This document shows, in pieces, positions 9,145-27,368 of a DNA stretch of 27,368 nt (position 1 is the first letter of the stretch; the number at the start of each line of letters is the position of its first letter). The notes under the pieces were generated by a model. The model did no database searches, was not told the DNA's origin, and saw only the letters and a program-made list of their open reading frames with translations. A program made the translations under genes and the position numbers. The stretch is from J061 sp003695725 [NCBI: Candidatus Schekmanbacteria bacterium] (lineage in GTDB: Bacteria; Schekmanbacteria; GWA2-38-11), in assembly GCA_003695725.1 (NCBI GenBank), contig RFHX01000180.1, positions 1 through 27,368 on the forward strand, in the 5' to 3' direction.

Positions 9145-11382
9145 ATGAAAACAAAAAAAGTGGAATCTCCAAGGGAAGCGGCACTGAAGAGGCGCAGGAA
9201 TGTAATAGTAGTAGCTGCGCTCATATTACTGTTTATAATTCTCCTTGTAATCGAGGTTACAACTCAGGACATTTCAGCATCTTCGCCTGTGGGCAATTAT
9301 GTTATATTCTATTCCTTTTACAACATCATCTTTATGCTGCTACTGATTTTGGTCTATCTGATTGTCCGGAATATTGTTAAACTTTATTTTGAAAGAGAGC
9401 GCTTAGAGCCCGGAGCAAAATTTAGAACAAAACTGATAGTTTCTTTTTTCCTTTTGACGAGTATTCCTTCTGTTGTCCTCTTCTTCTATGCCCGCTTTTT
9501 GATTTCACAGACTATGGAATATTGGTTCAGTGTCCCAATTGAGCAGTCCCTTCAAGGTGCCATACGCGTATCAGAGCAGTATTATGACGACATAAAGGGG
9601 AGGGCGGAAAATTTCTCATCGATTATCGGAAAGTCTATTCTTCGCAGAAACCTTCTTGCAGAAAAAAATAAGAAATATCTGAGAAATTACATAAAGAGCA
9701 AGGTTAATGAGTATGATATGGATGTCATATATGTTTATAATTCATCAGGAAAAAAAGTGATGGAAGCCTATTCAAAAGATGTGGATGAAGACAGAGTGAT
9801 CAAGCCTGATGATGACTTGATAAAGAAGATTCTTTCCAAAGAGAAGCTTTCAACCGTCATTCCTGCTGATGAGGGTGAATTGATATATGGATTGGTTTCC
9901 CTTGAAAATAGAAGAAAAAAGAAGATTGGTGTTGTGGCTGTGGGATATTATTTGCCTAGAAGTTTGACGGAAGATATAAAATCTGCAGCTATGGCATTTG
10001 AAGATTATCGACAAAAGGAGATTCTTAAAAAACCAATTGCAAACACCTATGTCGGTATGTTTGCGATAGTAACTATTTTAGTCATTTTTGCGGCGATGTG
10101 GTTTGGATTACAGCTTGCAAAGGAGATAACGATTCCTATCAAACAGCTTGCTGAAGGGACGAGAGAGGTGTCTAACGGCAATCTTGATTTTCACATTGAT
10201 ATAAAGGTAAGCGATAAGAGTGAAGATGAAATTGGAATATTAGTAGATTCTTTCAACAAGATGACAAATGATATAAAGATGAAAGAATTGGCACTTCAGG
10301 AGAAGAATTTAAGCCTCCAAAAGACAAATCGTGAGCTTGACAGGCGGAGAAGCTATATTGAAACAGTCCTTGAAAACATAGGCACAGGAGTCATTTCTCT
10401 CGATATATGGGGAAGAATAACGACTATAAATTCTGCTGCAGAAGAAATGCTGCACATAAAAGCAAGTGATTTTACAGGCAAACTCTTCAAGGACGCCTTT
10501 TCAACTTCAAAATTGGACCCTCTGAAGAAATTATTTCTTGAACTTGAGGAATCAGGAAATAGAAGCATAGAAGATGAAGTTAATCTAAATATAAAGGGCG
10601 AAGTTTTTACCTTTATGATAAATGTAAGCAAACTTTTCGATAGCGAGAATAATGAAATAGGCGTTGTAATGGTACTTGAAAATATGACCGAGCTTATCCG
10701 TGCTCAAAGAGTTGCTGCATGGCGCGAAGTAGCGAGAAGGATTGCCCATGAAATTAAAAACCCTTTGACTCCAATAAAACTATCTGCACAGCGGCTGAAA
10801 AAGAAATATTTTCAGGAAGGAAATGGAGATAAAGAGGTTTTTGTTTCCTGTGTTGATACGATTATTCAGGAAGTTGATGATTTGAAAAAAATGGTCAATG
10901 AATTTTCAAATTTTGCGCGAATGCCTTCCTTCAATCCTGTTGATGTAAACATCAAGGAACTTGCTGAAGAAACAATTTCTCTTTACAAAACAAGTATGAA
11001 AAATGTTAAAATAAACATAAATAATGGAAAAGATATCCCATTATTGAAACTTGACCCTGAGCAGATAAAAAGGGTATTTATCAATTTAATAGACAATGCT
11101 ATTGAATCGATGGACGGAAATGGTGAAATCAATATATCATTTGAGTATATGGCAGATTTACAGACAGTAAAAATTGAAGTATCAGACAATGGAAGAGGAA
11201 TACCTCCAAATGTTAAGGAGAAGCTCTTTTTGCCTTATTTTTCCACAAAAAAGAGCGGTACAGGGCTTGGATTAGCCATTGTCAATTCCATAATATCAGA
11301 ACATCGCGGTTATATTAGAGTGAAAGATAATATACCTCGAGGGACAACTTTTGTAATAGAATTACCTGTTAGAGGAGTTTAA
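9145..11382 (+). CDS. ntrY: NtrY-like membrane sensor histidine kinase
   Basis: Full-length 745-residue sensor kinase. Four hydrophobic segments lie near 19-38, 52-76, 97-119 and 301-322. An extracytoplasmic sensor region of about 180 residues sits between the third and fourth, the classic NtrY layout. Then follow a HAMP domain (about 322-380), a coiled-coil linker, a PAS domain (about 402-512), the HisKA helix with phospho-acceptor His535 in ARRIAHEIKNPLTPIKLS, and HATPase_c with the N box (INLIDNAIESM), DNGRGIP and GTGLGLA. The HEIKNPLTPI form is typical of NtrY/NtrB-type kinases. Ten bases separate it from the regulator-LpxC fusion, its obvious partner. The signal sensed is unknown; NtrY proteins elsewhere have been linked to nitrogen, redox or envelope signals. 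Confidence 0.92.
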   Translation: MKTKKVESPREAALKRRRNVIVVAALILLFIILLVIEVTTQDISASSPVGNYVIFYSFYNIIFMLLLILVYLIVRNIVKLYFERERLEPGAKFRTKLIVSFFLLTSIPSVVLFFYARFLISQTMEYWFSVPIEQSLQGAIRVSEQYYDDIKGRAENFSSIIGKSILRRNLLAEKNKKYLRNYIKSKVNEYDMDVIYVYNSSGKKVMEAYSKDVDEDRVIKPDDDLIKKILSKEKLSTVIPADEGELIYGLVSLENRRKKKIGVVAVGYYLPRSLTEDIKSAAMAFEDYRQKEILKKPIANTYVGMFAIVTILVIFAAMWFGLQLAKEITIPIKQLAEGTREVSNGNLDFHIDIKVSDKSEDEIGILVDSFNKMTNDIKMKELALQEKNLSLQKTNRELDRRRSYIETVLENIGTGVISLDIWGRITTINSAAEEMLHIKASDFTGKLFKDAFSTSKLDPLKKLFLELEESGNRSIEDEVNLNIKGEVFTFMINVSKLFDSENNEIGVVMVLENMTELIRAQRVAAWREVARRIAHEIKNPLTPIKLSAQRLKKKYFQEGNGDKEVFVSCVDTIIQEVDDLKKMVNEFSNFARMPSFNPVDVNIKELAEETISLYKTSMKNVKININNGKDIPLLKLDPEQIKRVFINLIDNAIESMDGNGEINISFEYMADLQTVKIEVSDNGRGIPPNVKEKLFLPYFSTKKSGTGLGLAIVNSIISEHRGYIRVKDNIPRGTTFVIELPVRGV

Positions 11383-11392
11383 AGAGTAAAAA

Positions 11393-13585
11393 ATGCCTAA
11401 AGGACATATATTAGTAGTAGATGATGAAAAAAATATTGGGACTTCCCTTGAAGGGATACTCACTGATGAGGGGTATACCGTATCAAAAGCCCTTGATGGG
11501 CCACAAGCTCTTGAAATGATAAAAGAATTGCCTCCGGATGTGGTCCTTCTCGATATTTGGATGCCCGGTATGGACGGAATAGAAGTGCTAAAAAATATCA
11601 AAGAATTCGAACGGGATCTTGAAGTAATAATTATGTCAGGACACGGGACAATCGAAACGGCTGTGCGGGCATTAAAGCTTGGAGCTTCTGATTTTATAGA
11701 GAAACCCCTTTCTATGGATGTTTTACTTTCAGCAGTCAATCGCGCATTTGAGAGAAGAATATTGAACAAGGAAAAAATTGAACTCAAAAGGGAGCTTGTC
11801 AAAAGATATAAACTTGTCGGTAAAAGTGAGCAGATTGAAAGAGTGCGGCAACTTATAAATGAAGTATCTAACGGCTCTTTCCCTGTGTTGGTGTATGGTG
11901 AAAGAGGCACCGGCAAGGAGTTGGTAGCAAGGATCATACACGATAACGGAGCAAAGAGGGAAAAGCCCTTCGTAAAAATAAATTGTGCCGCTATGAATGA
12001 AGAAATTTTGGAGCAGGAGATATTTGGTATAAACAGAGAAAATGGCAATTCTACCCCCAAAAGGGGAAAACTCGAGCTCGCTGCAGATGGCACAGTATTT
12101 TTTGATGGTATCGATAAACTTTCCAAGAATGTACAAAAGAAGCTTTTGGACCTCATTAAAACCCGAAAGTTTGCGCGTATCAATGGGAAAAAAGTCTTTT
12201 CAATGAAATTTAGAATATTAGCCGCATCCGAAAAAGATATTTCTAAGGCGGTCCAAGAAGATGAATTCCTGCCTGAATTGCAGAAGGAATTTACAACTTC
12301 CATTTATCTGCCTCCTTTACGGGAGAGGACAGAAGATATACCTGACCTTGTCAATTGCTTCATAGAAGACATAAGTGAAGATTATGGCAGAGGATTGAGA
12401 GAGATTGATGATGAAGCAATGGCAGAGTTAATGCTTTATAAATGGCCCAATAATGTCAAGGAATTGAAAAATATCTTGGAGAGATTGGCAATTTCAGTGC
12501 CAACAGGGAAAATAACTGATTCTGATGTGCGTAAAATATTGAGAGGCGGAAGCGATGTGAAATCCTTTGATTATGATGGATATTCTTATAAAGAGGCAAA
12601 GAAGAAATGGGAGAAGGAATATGTGACCAACATTTTGAAGAAAAACAGCTGGGACTTGAAGAAAGCCGCCAAAGAAATGGGAATCAGTAAAAAGACCCTT
12701 GATAAGAAAGTCAAGGCTTTTGGATTGATGAGAAAAAAGAAAAAAACGGCATCACAGGTTGTTTATCAGAAAACCTTGAAAACGAGTGTCGTCCTTTGCG
12801 GTCAAGGGCTTCATTCAGGTTTGAAAACAGGATTGATTTTAGTCCCACAGCCGCCTGATACGGGTATCATCTTCGCGAATGTTTCTACCGGTGAAACCGT
12901 AGAGGCAAATATAGACAATGTAGAATCGACAGAACATGCAACTTCTCTGAAAAAGGGGAAGTCGAATGTTAAAACTATCGAACATATAATGGCAGTGCTT
13001 AATATTTACGGCATCAATAATTTACTTATTAAAATTACAGATGAAGTGCCAATTATGGATGGGTCAGCTGTTGATTTTTGTGAGCTCATTGAGGATGGGG
13101 GAATAATTGAGCAGGAAGGTACCTGCGAGGCGATTGTCATCGACCGTGAAATTGTGTATGGAAAAGTAGGGAAGGGCAGTAAGTATATCAAGATAGAACC
13201 ATATGATGGTTTTGCCGTAAAGTATATTATGGATTATCCTCCCCCTATTGGGAAGCAGGTTGCTGAATTTGTCAGCAATGGCGCTGAAACTTTCAAGAAA
13301 GAGATAGCGCCTGCACGAACATTTGGTTTTTTAAAAGATGTTGAGTACCTTGAGAAGAAAGGATTGATAAGCGGAGGCAGGTTAAACAATGTGGTTCTTC
13401 TCGACAATGAAAAGGTGATAAATACTGAATTGAGATTTAAAGATGAATTTGCAAGGCACAAGATATTGGACATCATAGGTGACTTCTATCTCTTGGGCAG
13501 GCCTATAAGGGGAAAAATCACAGCCAATCTTACCGGCCATTCCGAAAATATTGCTCTTCTGAGAAAAATAAAATCCCTCTACTAA
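11393..13585 (+). CDS. lpxC: NtrX-type response regulator fused to LpxC deacetylase
   Basis: One unbroken 730-codon gene holds two complete proteins. Residues 1-120 form a receiver domain with Asp10/Asp11, phospho-acceptor Asp54 and Lys104. Residues 140-385 are an NtrC-family AAA+ domain that keeps the P-loop (GERGTGKE, 169-176). It lacks the GAFTGA loop, has Gly239 in place of the Walker B Glu, and lacks the arginine finger. Residues 400-445 are a Fis-type HTH (KKAAKEMGISKKTLDKKV). From about 458 to the end is UDP-3-O-acyl-GlcNAc deacetylase, committing UDP-GlcNAc to lipid A. It keeps GLHSG (His474), TIEH (Glu530, His531), IMDGSA, RTFGF, RHKILD (His689, Asp693) and GHSEN (His716). These match the zinc ligands and catalytic residues of LpxC. 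An internal ATG at 12728 could also yield free LpxC. The start follows the kinase stop by 10 bases. Confidence 0.93.
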   Translation: MPKGHILVVDDEKNIGTSLEGILTDEGYTVSKALDGPQALEMIKELPPDVVLLDIWMPGMDGIEVLKNIKEFERDLEVIIMSGHGTIETAVRALKLGASDFIEKPLSMDVLLSAVNRAFERRILNKEKIELKRELVKRYKLVGKSEQIERVRQLINEVSNGSFPVLVYGERGTGKELVARIIHDNGAKREKPFVKINCAAMNEEILEQEIFGINRENGNSTPKRGKLELAADGTVFFDGIDKLSKNVQKKLLDLIKTRKFARINGKKVFSMKFRILAASEKDISKAVQEDEFLPELQKEFTTSIYLPPLRERTEDIPDLVNCFIEDISEDYGRGLREIDDEAMAELMLYKWPNNVKELKNILERLAISVPTGKITDSDVRKILRGGSDVKSFDYDGYSYKEAKKKWEKEYVTNILKKNSWDLKKAAKEMGISKKTLDKKVKAFGLMRKKKKTASQVVYQKTLKTSVVLCGQGLHSGLKTGLILVPQPPDTGIIFANVSTGETVEANIDNVESTEHATSLKKGKSNVKTIEHIMAVLNIYGINNLLIKITDEVPIMDGSAVDFCELIEDGGIIEQEGTCEAIVIDREIVYGKVGKGSKYIKIEPYDGFAVKYIMDYPPPIGKQVAEFVSNGAETFKKEIAPARTFGFLKDVEYLEKKGLISGGRLNNVVLLDNEKVINTELRFKDEFARHKILDIIGDFYLLGRPIRGKITANLTGHSENIALLRKIKSLY

Positions 13586-16391: not shown

Positions 16392-16441
16392 AAAAGTGTT
16401 TATGAGATGCATTCGTAAATTTACTTGAAATTGAAAAAGTG

Positions 16442-17482
16442 ATGATGGATGCAAATGACCTTCCTTATCTTCAAGCTGCACATGGAAAGAGGCCTTCACG
16501 GATCCCTATTGTTATTGAAATACAGAGTGTAACTTCTCCATCAAATAAAAAACTTCGTGAGAGATATTCATTTTCAGAGATAATGGAAAGCCCTGAATTG
16601 AGTTCGCAATGTACTGTTAATCCTGTCATAGAAGTAGGATACGATGCCGCAATTCATGTATCGGACCTTCTTGTGCCCTTCCGTAGTATGGGATTTGATA
16701 TTATGTTATCCGAAGATGGAGGACCGCGCGTATCTAATCCTGTGAGAAACGCAGAAGACATTGAGAAAATGCCAATACCTGATCCTGCTGAAGCAATGAA
16801 GGTATGGCTTGAAGCAATGAGATTATCAAAAAAAGAACTTACAGGTAAGGCGCCCCTCATTGGTTGGATAGGAGGGCTGATGAGCACAAGCGCTTTCTTA
16901 ATCGAGGGAAAGGCGCCAACGGGGATGAAGGCTTATTACAATTTCAAGAAAATGATGCATTCAATGCCTGAATTTTTTCATTCCCTAATGGAAAAACTGA
17001 CAGAATTTTATCTCTCTTCCATTTCAGCCCAGGTTGAAGCAGGCGCCGATGTTATGATGTTGCTTGATTTAGGCGCTCCTGCTGTATTGTCTCCAGAGGA
17101 TTATAAATCCTTCTGTTTCCCCTATGTAAAGAAACTTTCCGAGAGAGTAAAAGCAGAAGGAGTCCCTTTGCTCTTTGCCTGTGACGGATGGAGTTTCCTT
17201 TATTCGCCTATTGAAGAATTGAATCCTGATATCTTAGCTGTAAGCTGGACGGTTGATATTGGAGATGTAATAAGCAGATTTGAATACAAGCAGGTTGTAC
17301 AGGGAAATTTAGAGCCTTACTGCCTTTTTGCTGATGAGAAGGAGATTGAGAAGAGAGTAAGAGAGATAGTTGAAAAAGGACTTCGTGCTCCTGCTCATAT
17401 ATTTAGTCTTGGCGGATGGATTGTAAGAGATACGCCCTATGAAAAAGTGCATTTTTTAGTTGATCTTGTCCATAGCCTGTAA
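16442..17482 (+). CDS. Uroporphyrinogen decarboxylase-like protein with altered active site
   Basis: Clearly in the UroD/MtaA superfamily and closest in layout to HemE along its length. Examples are SPELSSQCTVNPV, the VSDLLVP motif with the substrate-binding Asp near 75, NPVRNAEDIEKM, IEGKAPTG, VQGNLEP and LVDLVHSL at the end. Several residues that define HemE are missing. The MRQAGR loop that supplies two arginines reads IEIQSVTS. The tyrosine of the GAPWTLATY region is Phe near 152. The histidine of the LGHG motif is Gly near 325 (SLGGW). The HxC zinc motif of methyltransferases is also absent (FACDG). It therefore may not decarboxylate uroporphyrinogen; a different substrate or cofactor role is possible. 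The start could be GTG 16439, ATG 16442 or ATG 16445; no strong ribosome site decides. It converges on recD2, with 9 bases between the stops. Confidence 0.82.
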   Translation: MMDANDLPYLQAAHGKRPSRIPIVIEIQSVTSPSNKKLRERYSFSEIMESPELSSQCTVNPVIEVGYDAAIHVSDLLVPFRSMGFDIMLSEDGGPRVSNPVRNAEDIEKMPIPDPAEAMKVWLEAMRLSKKELTGKAPLIGWIGGLMSTSAFLIEGKAPTGMKAYYNFKKMMHSMPEFFHSLMEKLTEFYLSSISAQVEAGADVMMLLDLGAPAVLSPEDYKSFCFPYVKKLSERVKAEGVPLLFACDGWSFLYSPIEELNPDILAVSWTVDIGDVISRFEYKQVVQGNLEPYCLFADEKEIEKRVREIVEKGLRAPAHIFSLGGWIVRDTPYEKVHFLVDLVHSL

Positions 17483-23090: not shown

Positions 23091-25556
23091 TTAGAAATGC
23101 TTCCGAACTTTTATTTTTTGCCATTTGGTTTTTCCATAAGGAGTTATTATCCGAAATTTAACTTTTTTCTTTTTTGCTTTGTTCACTTTTATTATAATAG
23201 CATCGTTACCCCATTTTTCTATGGAAAGAACTCCGCCTTTAACGAGCATTTCAGCTGAATATTTATTTGGCCCAAAGTTTTCGCCTTCAACTGTAAAAGA
23301 CTCCTTTTTATTTACTTTTTTTGGAAAAACACTGTTTATTACCGGCTTATTAACTTCATATGTGAAGTTTTCGCTTGTTGTTTGCAAACCATCAGAGTTT
23401 TCTACTATGAACTGTATGGGCCCTTCTTTAAATCCCCAAGGAAGTGAAAAGGTAATTTCATCATTCTGCCAGCTTTCGATAGAACAATCAAATTCAAGAT
23501 TGCCGTCAGTTGCTTTAACTTTTACCTTTTCATCTCCAAAGTAATTTCCACTAAGTGTAACCTTATCGCCGAAAAAACCTGTATCAGGGCTTATAGATGT
23601 TATTGATGGATAATGGGAAAGTTCGGGAAGTTCTGTTCCTTCGATTATTTTTAATCCTCCTTCCCCTCCTGCCAAATACAGCATTGTATTATCTATAAAG
23701 ATGTCGTTGATTCCATGAGGGTATTTGTTTGGAGGAACAGTTCTAAGTTTAAAAGCTCCTTTATATTGAGGATTTGTATAATCTGAAATATCAAATACGA
23801 AAAGCTCGTCATAATATCCGCCCACATACATTTGATTGCCAGAAAGAGCTATTCTGTTTGCACCAAAATTCGTTTTTGTGAAGGAATGAAGCAGTGTTGG
23901 AGATGAAGGATTGGAAACATCTACAGTATATAAATATCTTCCACTGGCGACATACAAAATATCGTTCAATTGCTTGACGGAAAGAGCATATATTGCATTT
24001 TCAACAGTAAATTCTCCAATTAATCGAGGAGATTGGATATTGCTTACATCGATTATTTTAACGCCAGAGTATCCTTGAGAAAGATAGGCAGTTGTGCCCG
24101 AAAGATAAATCCCTTTGGCTTCGTTAACATTGATGGAATCAGGCTTGTATGAGCCAACAAGTGAAGGCGATGTGGGAGTGCTTACATCGATTATCTGTAA
24201 CCCCTCCTTAGGGCTTGCAAGATAAAGGTAAGAGCCGGAAAGATATAAATCGACAACATTGTCAATGTTATCGTAAGAGCCAAGAAAGGTTGGATTTGCT
24301 GTATCGCTTACATCGAGAATTATTACACCTTTATTTGCGGTAGCCAAATATGCGGTGCCATTATCGACAACAACCTTTTGGCAATTTATCGGCTTCCCAT
24401 CTTCAGCACTACTGTAAGAGCTTTCCCATTTTGGCAAATCTGTATTTGAAATATCGATGATAACAAGCCCTTCATAATAATCTGCTAAAAATGCTTTATC
24501 ATTGACGATGTAAACGCCCTTGACTCCGCTCACTGTTTTATATCTGCCAAGAAGCTCTGTTTCAAAGTTGTCATTTACATTTATGATATGTAATCCATTC
24601 CTTTTATCGGCGATATAGACCTTTGTTCCTTCTACATCAAATGCACTGATAACTGAATTGGGACCTGTACCATAGGATGAAGACTGGATGACAGGATTGA
24701 GTGGGTCATTTTTTATATCAAAGAACTTTAAAATTCCTGTTCTGCCTGATGTTAAAAAAAGTTTCGAATCCGTTGCTAAGATATTTCCATCTTTATTGGC
24801 ATAGGATTTTGCACTTTTAGTGATTTTTGGAAGAAGAGGATTTGAAAAATCAATGACATTAAATCCAGCGAATTTATTCCCTTCTTTTTTGGTCCCATCT
24901 ATCACATATGCAGTTGAGCCTTTTGAGGTTATTTTTTGAGCATAACCATTGGGGATGTAATAAATGCTTTTTAGATGCGGATTTGCAGGGTCAGACACAT
25001 CGATTAATTTTACAGCTCCTGACGTTCCGGAAACTGTAAATACATTGTTGTCGGAGATAGAGAGGTCGATGTCAAATGAGCCAACAAAAACTTTGCCGAG
25101 GAGTTGTGGAGAAGATGGCGTTGAAACATCAACTATCTTAAAACCTCCTCCATAATCTGCTATATAAGCCAAATTGTTTGAAACTGATATTTCACGCACA
25201 CTGTTTCCAGTGGAAAAAGAGCCTACTTTATGTGGTGAATAGGGGTTTGAATAGTCTATTATGTCAAATCCTTCATCTTGAGCAACATAAGCAATTTCAT
25301 TTGAAATACAAAAAGTGTCTAAATCAGTTCCATTGTAAAAAGAAAGAAGTACTGGGTCTGCAGGGGAAGAAGCATCGAGAGCAATTATTCCATTTTCTGT
25401 CGTAATATAAATGCGGCTATTTTCTACTTTGACATTATTGTAGCTTCCACCAAAGGTTGATAGCAGATGCATTATCTCGCTTTCAGCTCTTTTATTGACT
25501 GAAAGCAGAAGTAATAAGGAAAGAAGAATTATAAACAGATTTTTAATCCTAACCAT
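23091..25556 (-). CDS. Secreted LVIVD-repeat beta-propeller protein with two TIG-like domains
   Basis: An 821-residue exported protein. A signal peptide covers about residues 1-26 (a leucine-rich core, then RAESE). About 13-14 repeats of roughly 42 residues follow, each ending in an LVIVD-type core such as GFKIVDVSTPSSP, GVIILDVSDTANP or GLQIIDVSTPTSP and starting with an AY-A/V strand. Fourteen repeats would suit two seven-bladed propellers. The last 173 residues form two TIG/IPT-like domains (about 649-735 and 737-821), each with a W-x-N-D turn (SWQNDEITF, KWGNDAIII). There is no lipobox and no sorting motif that I recognise. LVIVD repeats occur in surface and choice-of-anchor proteins, so adhesion or binding is plausible but unproven. 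AAGG sits unusually close to the ATG. It lies 5 bases after its paralogue, so the two are probably co-transcribed. Confidence 0.85.
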   Translation of the reverse strand: MVRIKNLFIILLSLLLLLSVNKRAESEIMHLLSTFGGSYNNVKVENSRIYITTENGIIALDASSPADPVLLSFYNGTDLDTFCISNEIAYVAQDEGFDIIDYSNPYSPHKVGSFSTGNSVREISVSNNLAYIADYGGGFKIVDVSTPSSPQLLGKVFVGSFDIDLSISDNNVFTVSGTSGAVKLIDVSDPANPHLKSIYYIPNGYAQKITSKGSTAYVIDGTKKEGNKFAGFNVIDFSNPLLPKITKSAKSYANKDGNILATDSKLFLTSGRTGILKFFDIKNDPLNPVIQSSSYGTGPNSVISAFDVEGTKVYIADKRNGLHIINVNDNFETELLGRYKTVSGVKGVYIVNDKAFLADYYEGLVIIDISNTDLPKWESSYSSAEDGKPINCQKVVVDNGTAYLATANKGVIILDVSDTANPTFLGSYDNIDNVVDLYLSGSYLYLASPKEGLQIIDVSTPTSPSLVGSYKPDSINVNEAKGIYLSGTTAYLSQGYSGVKIIDVSNIQSPRLIGEFTVENAIYALSVKQLNDILYVASGRYLYTVDVSNPSSPTLLHSFTKTNFGANRIALSGNQMYVGGYYDELFVFDISDYTNPQYKGAFKLRTVPPNKYPHGINDIFIDNTMLYLAGGEGGLKIIEGTELPELSHYPSITSISPDTGFFGDKVTLSGNYFGDEKVKVKATDGNLEFDCSIESWQNDEITFSLPWGFKEGPIQFIVENSDGLQTTSENFTYEVNKPVINSVFPKKVNKKESFTVEGENFGPNKYSAEMLVKGGVLSIEKWGNDAIIIKVNKAKKKKVKFRIITPYGKTKWQKIKVRKHF

Positions 25557-25561
25557 ACCTT

Positions 25562-27368
25562 TTATTCATACATTGAAGAAATCATAGATATATTCAATTT
25601 TACTTGCCTGCTTTTTCCGTATCGTGTTTCTATCCATAATTCTGGATTATTGCTTGTTATTTGTTCGACTTTGAATCTAACTTCATTGTTTTTCCAGGAA
25701 GTCAGAACTGCCGAGAAGCCTTTGGCAATCAGCTTTTCAGTCTCGCTTTCTTCAGGACCAAAGTTTTTCCCCTTGATTATTATTTCATTTCCAACAGATA
25801 TATTTTTTGATGATAATTTATTGATGACAGGATTTTTGCCTTTGAAATAAATTTTTGTTTTTTTCTTTGAAGTTTTATCTGATGAGATAATGAGAATATC
25901 GGCTTTTCCTATTCTTGCTCCCCACGGGATTGCAACTGTTATTTTGTTTTCCGTCCATTCTTTGACTCTACACTTGATTTTATTGCCCTTTGATATGATA
26001 AAGACTTTTCCCTTTCCTTTTCCAAAACCCGTCCCTTCAAGAGAAAGTCTATCCTTATAGAATACCTTTCTTTTGCTGATTTTCCATATTCCAGATTGTT
26101 TGGGTGTTGACCATATTTCAAGTCCCGACCAACCTTGTGACACATAAAGAGTTTTCCCATCAGCGAATAAAGTTCCACCAGTTGGAATTTTTGCTATGAG
26201 TTTTGGTTCTGATGGATTTTCAATGTCGAATACGGCGACTCCATAATCAATTTTTCCACCCATCTCATCTGCATCAAAATATGCCAAATTTCCGGATACT
26301 GATAGATCGTATCCCGATTCTCCAATTCCTGTCTTACCGATTATGTCTATTAACGATGGATTCTCTGCATCGGCAATGGAAAAACTACCATATATGGTAG
26401 AATAATAAAGCGTTGTTTTGTTCGCTGAAAATCCGCTTTCCTTACCGGCATAATAGGCGCCAACAATGGATGGAGAAGAAGGAGTAGTTGCGTCAATAAT
26501 GATGATACCCTCTTTAGAATTGGCAACATAAACCCTGCCATTGTAACTGTATATTCCAATTGGAGATGATCCACTATAAACCTGAGCTGACAATGTCGGA
26601 GAGATAGGATCAGTAACATCTATTATATCAAGGATACCTCCTGCATTTGCAACGAATGCAGTATTTTCCCATTCAGAAACATAAAGAGCATTTTCAGTTT
26701 TTATTGAACCTATGAGTGATGGGGAAGTGGGATCAGAAACATCAGCGATGAGTAAGCCATTTTTACCATCTGCAATGTATGCTTTACCGTTCGAAGCAAA
26801 TATGTCATTGCAATATCCTTTCGTTTCTAAAGCGCCTAAAAAAGTTGGCTTGCTGATATCAGAGGTGTCGATTATAACCATTCCGCCTTCGCCTGTTGAA
26901 ATATATCCTTTATTATCTTTGACCGATATTCTTATTACCGTTCCGGCTGTAAGATATGATCCTTCCAATGATGGGGATGAAGGATTGCTTACATCGATGA
27001 TGAACAGTCCGCGTGAATTATTAGTTGCAAAGAGTTTTGAGTTTTGAAGAAATAGACTGCCAATATTCAATTCCAAGTCCAATTTTCCAAGAAGTGTTGG
27101 GCTCGATGGATTTGACACATCGAGAATTTGAAGACCTGACTTTTCAGTGCTCAAATAAGCCACCTTATCTTGAACTAAAACATCTCCAATTGAGTCAGAG
27201 CCATATTTTGCCAAAAGAGCTGGTGATGAAGGATGACTGACATCTGCAATATAAAGCCCATCATAGGAGGCAATGTATGCTGTTTTTCCTGAAATGTAAA
27301 TATGGCGCGCCCAATTCGTTGAAAACGAGATATTGCCCACATTAGCAGGTGAAGAGGGATTGCTGATA
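25562..27368 (-). CDS. LVIVD-repeat protein with two TIG-like domains, 5' partial
   Basis: A paralogue of its neighbour, cut by the right window edge. The frame stays open to the edge: residues before the GTG at 27340 read ISNPSSPAN, the end of another repeat, so that GTG is internal. About ten repeats are seen, such as GLQILDVSNPSSP, GLFIIDVSNPSSP, GLLIADVSDPTSP and GIIIIDATTPSSP. The last clear propeller strand is GLEIWSTP. Two TIG/IPT-like domains then make up about the last 175 residues, with EWTENKITVAIPWG and SWKNNEVRF corresponding to the neighbour's turns. The repeats are more uniform here than in the neighbour. A signal peptide presumably lies outside the window. The binding partner is unknown. 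Confidence 0.85.
   Translation of the reverse strand, partial: ISNPSSPANVGNISFSTNWARHIYISGKTAYIASYDGLYIADVSHPSSPALLAKYGSDSIGDVLVQDKVAYLSTEKSGLQILDVSNPSSPTLLGKLDLELNIGSLFLQNSKLFATNNSRGLFIIDVSNPSSPSLEGSYLTAGTVIRISVKDNKGYISTGEGGMVIIDTSDISKPTFLGALETKGYCNDIFASNGKAYIADGKNGLLIADVSDPTSPSLIGSIKTENALYVSEWENTAFVANAGGILDIIDVTDPISPTLSAQVYSGSSPIGIYSYNGRVYVANSKEGIIIIDATTPSSPSIVGAYYAGKESGFSANKTTLYYSTIYGSFSIADAENPSLIDIIGKTGIGESGYDLSVSGNLAYFDADEMGGKIDYGVAVFDIENPSEPKLIAKIPTGGTLFADGKTLYVSQGWSGLEIWSTPKQSGIWKISKRKVFYKDRLSLEGTGFGKGKGKVFIISKGNKIKCRVKEWTENKITVAIPWGARIGKADILIISSDKTSKKKTKIYFKGKNPVINKLSSKNISVGNEIIIKGKNFGPEESETEKLIAKGFSAVLTSWKNNEVRFKVEQITSNNPELWIETRYGKSRQVKLNISMISSMYE

What the first reader, a model, noticed from the sequence alone, without database searches (positions are those of the whole stretch)
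11393..13585. NtrX-type response regulator and LpxC in a single polypeptide beside an NtrY kinase
Seen: one open frame runs through a receiver, an AAA+ domain and a Fis-type HTH, then after a short lysine-rich linker straight into a complete LpxC with all recognisable zinc and catalytic residues (His474, His531, His689, Asp693, His716). The cognate kinase lies 10 bases upstream. Known: LpxC is the committed, tightly controlled step of lipid A synthesis, normally a separate protein; in E. coli it is controlled by FtsH proteolysis through a C-terminal tail. This protein ends about 14 residues after His716 and has no such tail, although Aquifex-type LpxC is similarly short. Inference: phosphorylation of the receiver may set LpxC activity, assembly or stability directly, or the enzyme may tune the regulator according to lipid A precursor supply. 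I know of no characterised example.
Basis: partly seen in the sequence, partly recalled or inferred. Interest (0 to 1): 0.9.

Follow-up and report, generated by a model that had tools for sequence, protein, structure and literature searches.

The report
Lipid A enzyme fused to signalling receiver
In a group of mostly uncultured bacteria the only copy found of LpxC, the enzyme that commits cells to making the outer-membrane lipid A, is built into a two-component response regulator, and since some relatives have lost the DNA-binding half while keeping the phosphate-receiving half, the sensor kinase probably controls this enzyme directly.

Summary
Observation confirmed. Window 11393-13585 is one frame: receiver, AAA+, Fis-type HTH, complete LpxC, 10 bases behind ntrY, and the genome's only LpxC. 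25 of 386 bacterial genomes carry such a fusion; all 31 fusion genomes studied have one LpxC. The 31 fused LpxC domains form one lineage against 74 separate ones (100/99). Its regulator part erodes in steps: receiver-AAA+-HTH-LpxC (12), receiver-AAA+-LpxC (6), receiver-LpxC (13). The phosphoacceptor Asp and zinc/catalytic residues persist in 31 of 31; the sigma-54-contacting GAFTGA loop is gone in 18 of 18 AAA+ domains. The receivers side with NtrX; no separate NtrX was found at control level in 26 fusion genomes; in seven receiver-LpxC genomes NtrY has no regulator beside it. Best reading: NtrYX, which lowers lpxC transcription in alphaproteobacteria (PMC7240162, PMC12444477), became here a direct, phosphorylation-dependent controller of the LpxC protein. 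Activity, sign and mechanism are inferred. The searches listed showed no description in print. A new output enzyme for response regulators.

The parts
9145..11382 (+). NtrY-type membrane sensor histidine kinase (4 hydrophobic segments, HAMP, PAS, HisKA, HATPase_c)
   Evidence: H-box HEIKNP, GTGLGL and simple hydropathy
11393..13585 (+). NtrX-type response regulator fused to LpxC, 730 aa, only LpxC match of the genome
11408..11737 (+). receiver domain (residues 6-115); phosphoacceptor Asp54 at 11552-11554
11813..12550 (+). degenerate AAA+ domain with lid (residues 141-386): Walker A intact, Walker B Glu replaced by Gly239
12005..12064 (+). stretch where the GAFTGA loop is expected (residues 205-224); motif absent
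12611..12721 (+). Fis-type HTH (residues 407-443), 26.9 bits against cut-off 22
12731..12766 (+). lysine-rich linker (residues 447-458); residues 447-453 pLDDT under 50
12767..13573 (+). LpxC deacetylase domain (residues 459-727)

Best explanation
The protein is an enzyme-output response regulator. NtrY, a membrane kinase with a predicted periplasmic part, phosphorylates Asp54 of the receiver (inferred from adjacency and conserved motifs), and the phosphorylation state of the receiver sets how much LpxC works in the cell at the level of the protein, most likely by changing how the receiver pairs with itself or docks on LpxC across a flexible linker (inferred). The AAA+ and HTH parts are remnants of NtrX: they lack parts needed to activate sigma-54 RNA polymerase, may still bind ATP and, in this genome, perhaps DNA, and are absent in other members of the lineage. 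The sign is unknown; I would bet that signalling lowers LpxC output, since NtrYX lowers lpxC transcription in Rhodobacter sphaeroides and Caulobacter (PMC7240162, PMC12444477). Shown: the fusion, its conservation, sole-copy status, the single LpxC lineage, the decay of the regulator parts. Inferred: phosphotransfer, effect on LpxC, sign.
For: One LpxC match in each of 31 fusion genomes. Fused LpxCs are one side of a single branch, 100/99, in 100% of 200 bootstrap trees (the bootstrap had not fully settled). No unfused member of the group was seen: profile scores fall from 390 bits or more (25 fusion genomes) to 262 (next) over 386 genomes. Asp54 31/31, Ser/Thr82 31/31, Lys104 30/31; E530, H531, H689, K690, D693, H716 31/31. 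GAFTGA or close forms 0 of 18 fused AAA+ against 64 of 67 separate NtrX; Walker B Glu 3 of 18 against 66 of 67; at receiver identity 0.5-0.6 the AAA+ identity is 0.28 (92 pairs) against 0.61 (434 pairs). 13 of 31 have no AAA+ or HTH (Pfam run on 5 of the 13). Fused and NtrX receivers are separated from 16 NtrC-family paralogs, 100/99. NtrX profile: 740 bits in an independent control genome and 780-812 in three whose NtrX was in the profile, against at most 566 for any non-fusion protein listed in 26 fusion genomes. NtrY without a neighbouring regulator in 7 receiver-LpxC genomes, each with H-box and GTGLGL. lpxC-ntrY-ntrX neighbourhood in 35 of 71 separate-NtrX loci.
Against: No biochemical data. 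In the receiver tree the fused receivers do not form one group (5 changes on the best tree, one group in 0% of bootstraps; starred branches force only 1; 125 columns, long branches), so the single origin rests on LpxC. The receiver-LpxC linker is variable and predicted disordered (residues 127-162 pLDDT under 50), which does not suggest rigid allosteric coupling; pTM 0.77 for receiver-LpxC but 0.55 for the window protein leaves domain placement open. In one family two of three rows have changed receiver residues (G097 Lys104 to Arg, G371 DSD in the acidic pocket), all three have H474 to Gln, and G097 shows no NtrY_N match; G011's NtrY_N match is below the cut-off. The window protein still has an HTH over Pfam's cut-off and Walker A, so it may do more than control LpxC. 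17 of 71 loci have ntrY but no lpxC upstream.
Confidence: 0.6

Rival explanations
1. The receiver controls LpxC abundance or place rather than catalysis: phosphorylation exposes or hides a protease signal, or ties LpxC to NtrY at the membrane.
For: LpxC is controlled by FtsH proteolysis in E. coli, and Lon is implicated in some alphaproteobacteria (PMC12444477, passages seen); the window protein lacks the longer C-terminal tail, so another handle would be needed; flexible linker.
Against: No degron or membrane anchor was looked for or identified; nothing tested here bears on turnover.
Confidence: 0.22
2. Trigger enzyme: LpxC senses its substrate and tunes NtrX as a transcription factor.
For: The window protein, L112 and L162 keep an HTH_8 match over the curated cut-off and Walker A is intact in 18 of 18 AAA-bearing fusions.
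Against: GAFTGA absent in 18 of 18; HTH_8 over the cut-off in only 3 of 18 AAA-bearing fusions against 6 of 6 separate NtrX scanned; HTH and AAA+ absent in 13 of 31 while the receiver stays.
Confidence: 0.1
3. Both at once in the full-length forms: a residual, probably sigma-54-independent DNA-binding regulator plus direct LpxC control.
For: HTH predicted well folded in the window protein; NtrX may act as a repressor and NtrYX lowers lpxC transcript in R. sphaeroides, though no NtrX site was found upstream of lpxC there (PMC7240162, passages).
Against: HTH identity in fusions is 0.27 (45 pairs) where separate NtrX have 0.54 at the same receiver identity, as expected of relaxed constraint.
Confidence: 0.2
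4. Neutral tether: a fixed fusion that keeps stoichiometry but carries no signal to LpxC.
For: A single LpxC lineage can persist by inheritance.
Against: All five receiver residues checked are canonical in 28 of 31 rows (exceptions L129, L163, L171) while AAA+ and HTH decayed in the same chain, so the receiver is under selection as a receiver; no member without it was seen in the 386 genomes.
Confidence: 0.08

Closest known systems
NtrYX two-component system of alphaproteobacteria (R. sphaeroides, C. crescentus)
   Same: NtrY-type kinase and a receiver that sides with NtrX; linked to envelope and lpxC: 8.8-fold more lpxC transcript in an ntrYX mutant (PMC7240162, passages).
   Different: There NtrX is a separate transcription factor and lpxC a separate gene; no NtrX site upstream of lpxC was found. 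Here LpxC is the output domain. Alphaproteobacterial NtrX itself was not in my trees.
LpxC (UDP-3-O-acyl-GlcNAc deacetylase), Aquifex/Pseudomonas structures
   Same: Pfam LpxC over the whole domain, zinc and catalytic residues; the model of the relative L078 matches Aquifex LpxC at TM 0.94 normalised to the target.
   Different: Fused to an N-terminal receiver; own branch with nine residues typical of the fused group such as Lys547 where others mostly have Glu/Asp.
LpxC/FabZ fusions of Bacteroidetes, Chlorobi, Verrucomicrobia (PMC3087551, passages)
   Same: LpxC built into a larger polypeptide.
   Different: Partner is another lipid enzyme at the C terminus, not a signalling receiver; the LpxC-FabA-like proteins checked (L116, L123) lie outside the fused group.
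Response regulators with enzyme outputs (CheB, diguanylate cyclases; recalled)
   Same: Receiver fused to an enzyme rather than to a DNA-binding domain.
   Different: Output is a committed biosynthetic enzyme of the outer membrane; derived from an NtrC-type regulator with loss of its middle and HTH.
E. coli YejM-LapB-FtsH control of LpxC; P. aeruginosa MurA-LpxC (PMC12444477, passages)
   Same: Post-translational control of the same enzyme.
   Different: Uses proteolysis or partner binding, not aspartyl phosphorylation.
DVU2934 response regulator targeting lpxC in Desulfovibrio vulgaris (PMC3333781, passages)
   Same: Two-component control aimed at lpxC; in S. fumaroxidans lpxC lies directly upstream of the regulator operon.
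   Different: Transcriptional, separate proteins.

Membership tests
NtrC-family sigma-54 activator | GAFTGA loop | tested here: not met
   0 of 18 AAA-bearing fusions, 64 of 67 separate NtrX, close forms allowed
NtrC-family sigma-54 activator | Walker A and Walker B (DE) | tested here: not met
   Walker A 18/18; Walker B Glu in 3 of 18, Gly in the window
NtrC-family sigma-54 activator | C-terminal Fis HTH | tested here: met
   HTH_8 26.9 bits, cut-off 22, in the window protein; over the cut-off in 3 of 18 AAA-bearing fusions
NtrX lineage | receiver groups with NtrX, not with NtrC paralogs | tested here: met
   31 fused + 24 NtrX on one side, 16 paralogs on the other, 100/99; order inside unresolved and fused rows not one group there (125 columns)
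NtrX lineage | NtrY partner | tested here: met
   adjacent in the window; NtrY_N match in 18 of 20 fusion genomes, 17 over the cut-off
LpxC | complete domain with zinc ligands and catalytic Glu/His | tested here: met
LpxC | sole lpxC in a genome with the lipid A pathway | tested here: met
   one LpxC match; LpxB present in G000 and in 29 of 32 handles, two of which are one genome; other pathway genes not searched
LpxC | deacetylase activity | not testable with these tools
   needs enzyme assay
FtsH/LapB-degraded LpxC | C-terminal degron tail | tested here: not met
   14 residues after H716; match ends at 726 of 730
Enzyme-output response regulator | intact phosphorylation site | tested here: met
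   D10, D11, D54, S82, K104 in the window
Enzyme-output response regulator | output activity depends on phosphorylation | not testable with these tools
   needs purified proteins

The most novel reading that the evidence does not exclude
Lipid A synthesis in this lineage is governed by a two-component system acting straight on the committed enzyme: NtrY senses the envelope and switches LpxC up or down by aspartyl phosphorylation, another solution to LPS balance beside FtsH-LapB-YejM proteolysis and MurA binding, reached by turning a transcription factor step by step into an enzyme's regulatory domain.
Probability: 0.5. Interest if true: 0.93.

Novelty: new variant of a known kind. Interest (0 to 1): 0.85.

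Why it matters
LpxC is an essential antibiotic target whose control is a central question of outer-membrane biology. A lineage in which it stays joined to a receiver gives a direct way to ask how signals set LPS synthesis, suggests that the NtrYX-lpxC link is old (lpxC-ntrY-ntrX neighbourhood in 35 of 71 loci), and supplies a natural series in which a DNA-binding regulator loses its DNA-related parts while its receiver is kept for an enzyme. The receiver-LpxC forms (frames of 427-484 aa) are small enough for structure and kinetics.

Tried and rejected
Assembly artefact or chimera: rejected, 31 distinct fusions. Second lpxC elsewhere: none found. Long LpxC frames as fusions by length alone: rejected; the 720-aa frame of G071 and the 443-aa frame of L123 are LpxC-FabA-like, not receivers. 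The first 386-genome survey with PF03331 did not serve, as only the top 150 rows were listed and fusions score lower; replaced by a receiver-LpxC profile, in which at most four candidates per genome were scored. No RpoN as the reason for AAA+ decay: rejected, sigma-54 found in 18 of 20 fusion genomes. NtrY inside an LPS-export cluster: I guessed this from gene lengths; Pfam showed a sigma-70 factor, a zinc-ribbon protein, an RNase H-like protein and SmpB around NtrY in L151, and DUF4390 genes in L152 and L157. G085's 566-bit regulator as a hidden NtrX: has GSFTGA and no NtrY beside it; left undecided. Interdomain docking from AlphaFold: no inter-domain error or coordinates were returned, so not used beyond linker disorder. 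Order of AAA+ loss: unresolved at the base (needs 4 changes for receiver-LpxC; starred branches force only 1).

Weak points of controls: three of the four control genomes hold NtrX that went into the profile; only G087 (740 bits) is independent, and a divergent NtrX could hide among the 460-566-bit hits. The list is cut at 150 rows. The N-box pattern missed 6 of the 7 lone NtrY proteins and 10 of 20 in all, and G-box patterns missed L118 and L164, so only H-box (20 of 20) and GTGLGL-type box (18 of 20) are claimed. In L155 the contig ends 0.8 kb behind ntrY, so a regulator there is not fully excluded.

Rows dropped: duplicates L001, L114 (=L032), L120 (=L034), L160 (=L033) before counting 31 fusions; L050 and LpxC frames under 230 aa; L028/L116 are one locus counted twice among the 74 separate rows; 24 of 67 NtrX used by my choice, and 2 of 18 paralogs (L176, L187) dropped because my gene caller picked another frame. 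The gene caller also missed the fusions in L166 and L170, found by direct translation. Further fusion-type hits are not in the trees and were not read; of 71 loci 35 have the neighbourhood, 17 have ntrY without lpxC, 9 are too short, 10 without ntrY found; L092 and L105 are in the last class although one search shows lpxC and ntrY there.

Full report
What is there. Window 11393-13585 (+) is a single 730-codon frame. Pfam places a receiver at residues 6-115, a sigma-54-type AAA+ domain at 141-296 with its lid at 310-386, a Fis-type HTH at 407-443 and a complete LpxC at 459-727. ntrY (9145-11382) ends 10 bases upstream; purM- and purN-like genes follow downstream (named from Pfam AIRS and formyltransferase matches). 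The genome (97.8% complete) has exactly one LpxC match, this one, and has LpxB, so the fusion is the enzyme the cell depends on if it makes lipid A. The nearest named relative is Candidatus Schekmanbacteria GWA2_38_11, 57% identical in the best segment, matched over residues 1-729.

How widespread. A scan with PF03331 of 98 genomes showed long LpxC frames in other families. A profile built from eight receiver-LpxC proteins (A1) separates fusions cleanly: 25 of 386 genomes score 390-679 bits, and the best unfused LpxC scores 262. All 25 were read and carry a receiver. Six further fusions come from named records (L035, L055, L078, L086, L106, L107), making 31. Named cases are Schekmanbacteria, Nitrospinae, Tectomicrobia, a Nitrospirae bin, a Syntrophaceae bin and 'Deltaproteobacteria' or uncultured bins. 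In the phylum of G065 19 of 24 genomes score 355 bits or more and one more has a partial match (three of them read in detail); in the phylum of G085 3 of 199; in that of G075 2 of 3. So the fusion is near-fixed in some phyla and rare in others. Each of the 31 fusion genomes has exactly one LpxC match, the fusion.

One LpxC lineage, eroding regulator. In a maximum-likelihood tree of 105 LpxC domains (31 fused, 74 separate) the fused ones are one side of one branch, support 100/99, in all 200 bootstrap trees, with a stem of 0.67 changes per column; the bootstrap had not fully settled. By domain matches and alignment 12 have receiver-AAA+-HTH-LpxC, 6 have receiver-AAA+-LpxC and 13 have receiver-LpxC. 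On the tree the HTH-less forms lie in several places (starred branches force at least 3 changes); receiver-LpxC forms need 4 changes on the best tree though only 1 is forced. In the 18 AAA-bearing fusions GAFTGA is absent in all, Walker A is kept in all, and the Walker B Glu is kept in 3; in 67 separate NtrX GAFTGA or a close form is found in 64 and the Glu in 66. HTH_8 passes Pfam's cut-off in 3 of 18 AAA-bearing fusions (window, L112, L162) and in 6 of 6 separate NtrX scanned. At equal receiver identity (0.5-0.6) AAA+ identity is 0.28 in fusions (92 pairs) and 0.61 in NtrX (434 pairs); HTH 0.27 (45 pairs) and 0.54; LpxC in the same fusions 0.56. So the middle of the protein is losing constraint while both ends keep it.

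Both ends intact. Asp54 is present in 31 of 31, Ser or Thr at 82 in 31, Lys104 in 30, the acidic pair in 30 each; E530, H531, H689, K690, D693 and H716 in 31 of 31; H474 in 28. The receiver exceptions are L129 (Arg at 104), L171 (Ser at 11) and L163 (Glu at 10); the three H474 exceptions are L129, L167 and L171, one family. Nine LpxC positions are typical of the fused group and rare in others, among them Lys547 where separate LpxC mostly have Glu or Asp.

Where it comes from and who signals. Fused receivers and NtrX receivers lie on one side of a branch and 16 NtrC-family paralogs on the other (100/99). Within that side the fused receivers are not one group (5 changes on the best tree, one group in none of the bootstraps; starred branches force only 1), with 125 columns and several long branches, so this tree neither supports nor excludes a single receiver origin. 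A profile of 11 NtrX gives 740 bits in an independent control genome (G087) and 780-812 in three genomes whose NtrX was in the profile, and at most 566 for any non-fusion protein in 26 fusion genomes; I therefore see no separate NtrX there, with the caveat that a divergent one would score lower. NtrY is found in 18 of 20 fusion genomes by PF19312, 17 of them over the cut-off, and upstream of the fusion in G034, one of the two misses, by phmmer; G097 has none seen. In seven receiver-LpxC genomes NtrY lies elsewhere with no regulator found next to it (in one, L155, the contig ends 0.8 kb behind it), with H-box and GTGLGL present. Among 71 loci with separate NtrX, found by their likeness to the window protein and not by lpxC, 35 or more have lpxC just upstream of ntrY, 17 have ntrY without lpxC, and the rest are short or unclear. 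An lpxC-ntrY-ntrX neighbourhood is therefore a plausible source of the fusion, although the order differs and a rearrangement is needed.

Structure. AlphaFold2 gives the L078 receiver-LpxC protein mean pLDDT 83.8 and pTM 0.77 with a disordered linker (127-162); its LpxC part matches Aquifex LpxC at TM 0.94 normalised to the target, and none of the 50 PDB rows listed (of 1825 matches) covers both domains. By sequence none of the 60 PDB rows listed (of 75) spans receiver and LpxC for the window protein. The window protein reaches pLDDT 88.3, pTM 0.55, with weak spots at 386-391 and 447-453. Domain placement is not settled.

Mechanism. What is shown: a sole LpxC with complete catalytic residues has stayed joined to an NtrX-type receiver throughout a broad lineage, and the receiver's phosphorylation site has been kept while the DNA-related parts decayed. 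What follows by inference: NtrY phosphorylates Asp54 and this changes LpxC output at the protein level. Known biology fits: NtrYX loss raises lpxC transcript 8.8-fold in R. sphaeroides, and NtrYX inhibits lpxC transcription in Caulobacter (PMC7240162 and PMC12444477, passages seen). The 2025 review describes LpxC control by FtsH-LapB-YejM, MurA binding and NtrYX/ChvGI transcription; the words 'fusion' and 'response regulator' do not occur in its main text. The most likely physical step is phosphorylation-driven receiver pairing or docking; control of stability or place is the main rival.

Literature. Searches combining LpxC with response regulator, receiver domain, NtrY/NtrX, fusion wording and output domains listed no paper on a receiver-LpxC protein; for only 20 of 54, 20 of 269 and 8 of 24 papers were listed. 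The one known LpxC fusion seen is LpxC/FabZ (PMC3087551, passages). The main text of the 2005 signal-protein census (PMC1183210, word search) does not contain LpxC. Only open-licence papers are held, and architecture databases were not available, so an unheld or database-only listing is possible.

Noticed in passing
L036, L039, L043-L047 and others: lpxC-ntrY-ntrX gene neighbourhood in at least 35 of 71 loci with separate NtrX (Desulfuromonadales, Desulfobacterales, Rokubacteria, Methylomirabilota).
   Followed up: partly
L129, L167, L171 (genomes G097, G242, G371): A receiver-LpxC subgroup with His474 replaced by Gln in all three, changed receiver residues in two, mutS upstream in L129, and no NtrY_N match in G097; may have lost or changed its kinase.
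   Followed up: partly
L116:5125-7284: 720-aa LpxC-FabA-like protein with about 287 N-terminal residues that match no Pfam family.
   Followed up: no
G108:C5, G182:C46, G203:C89: Other LpxC frames of 626, 675 and 757 aa that are not among the 25 receiver-type hits; partners not examined.
   Followed up: no
L152:4641-5351, L157:7585-8274: DUF4390 gene beside or near ntrY in genomes with different fusion types; function unknown.
   Followed up: no
window 23091-27340: Two adjacent large minus-strand genes with repeated LVIVD-like motifs (by eye, no family search run), perhaps surface beta-propeller proteins.
   Followed up: no
window 16439-17482: URO-D family protein next to a PpiC-type prolyl isomerase gene.
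   Followed up: no
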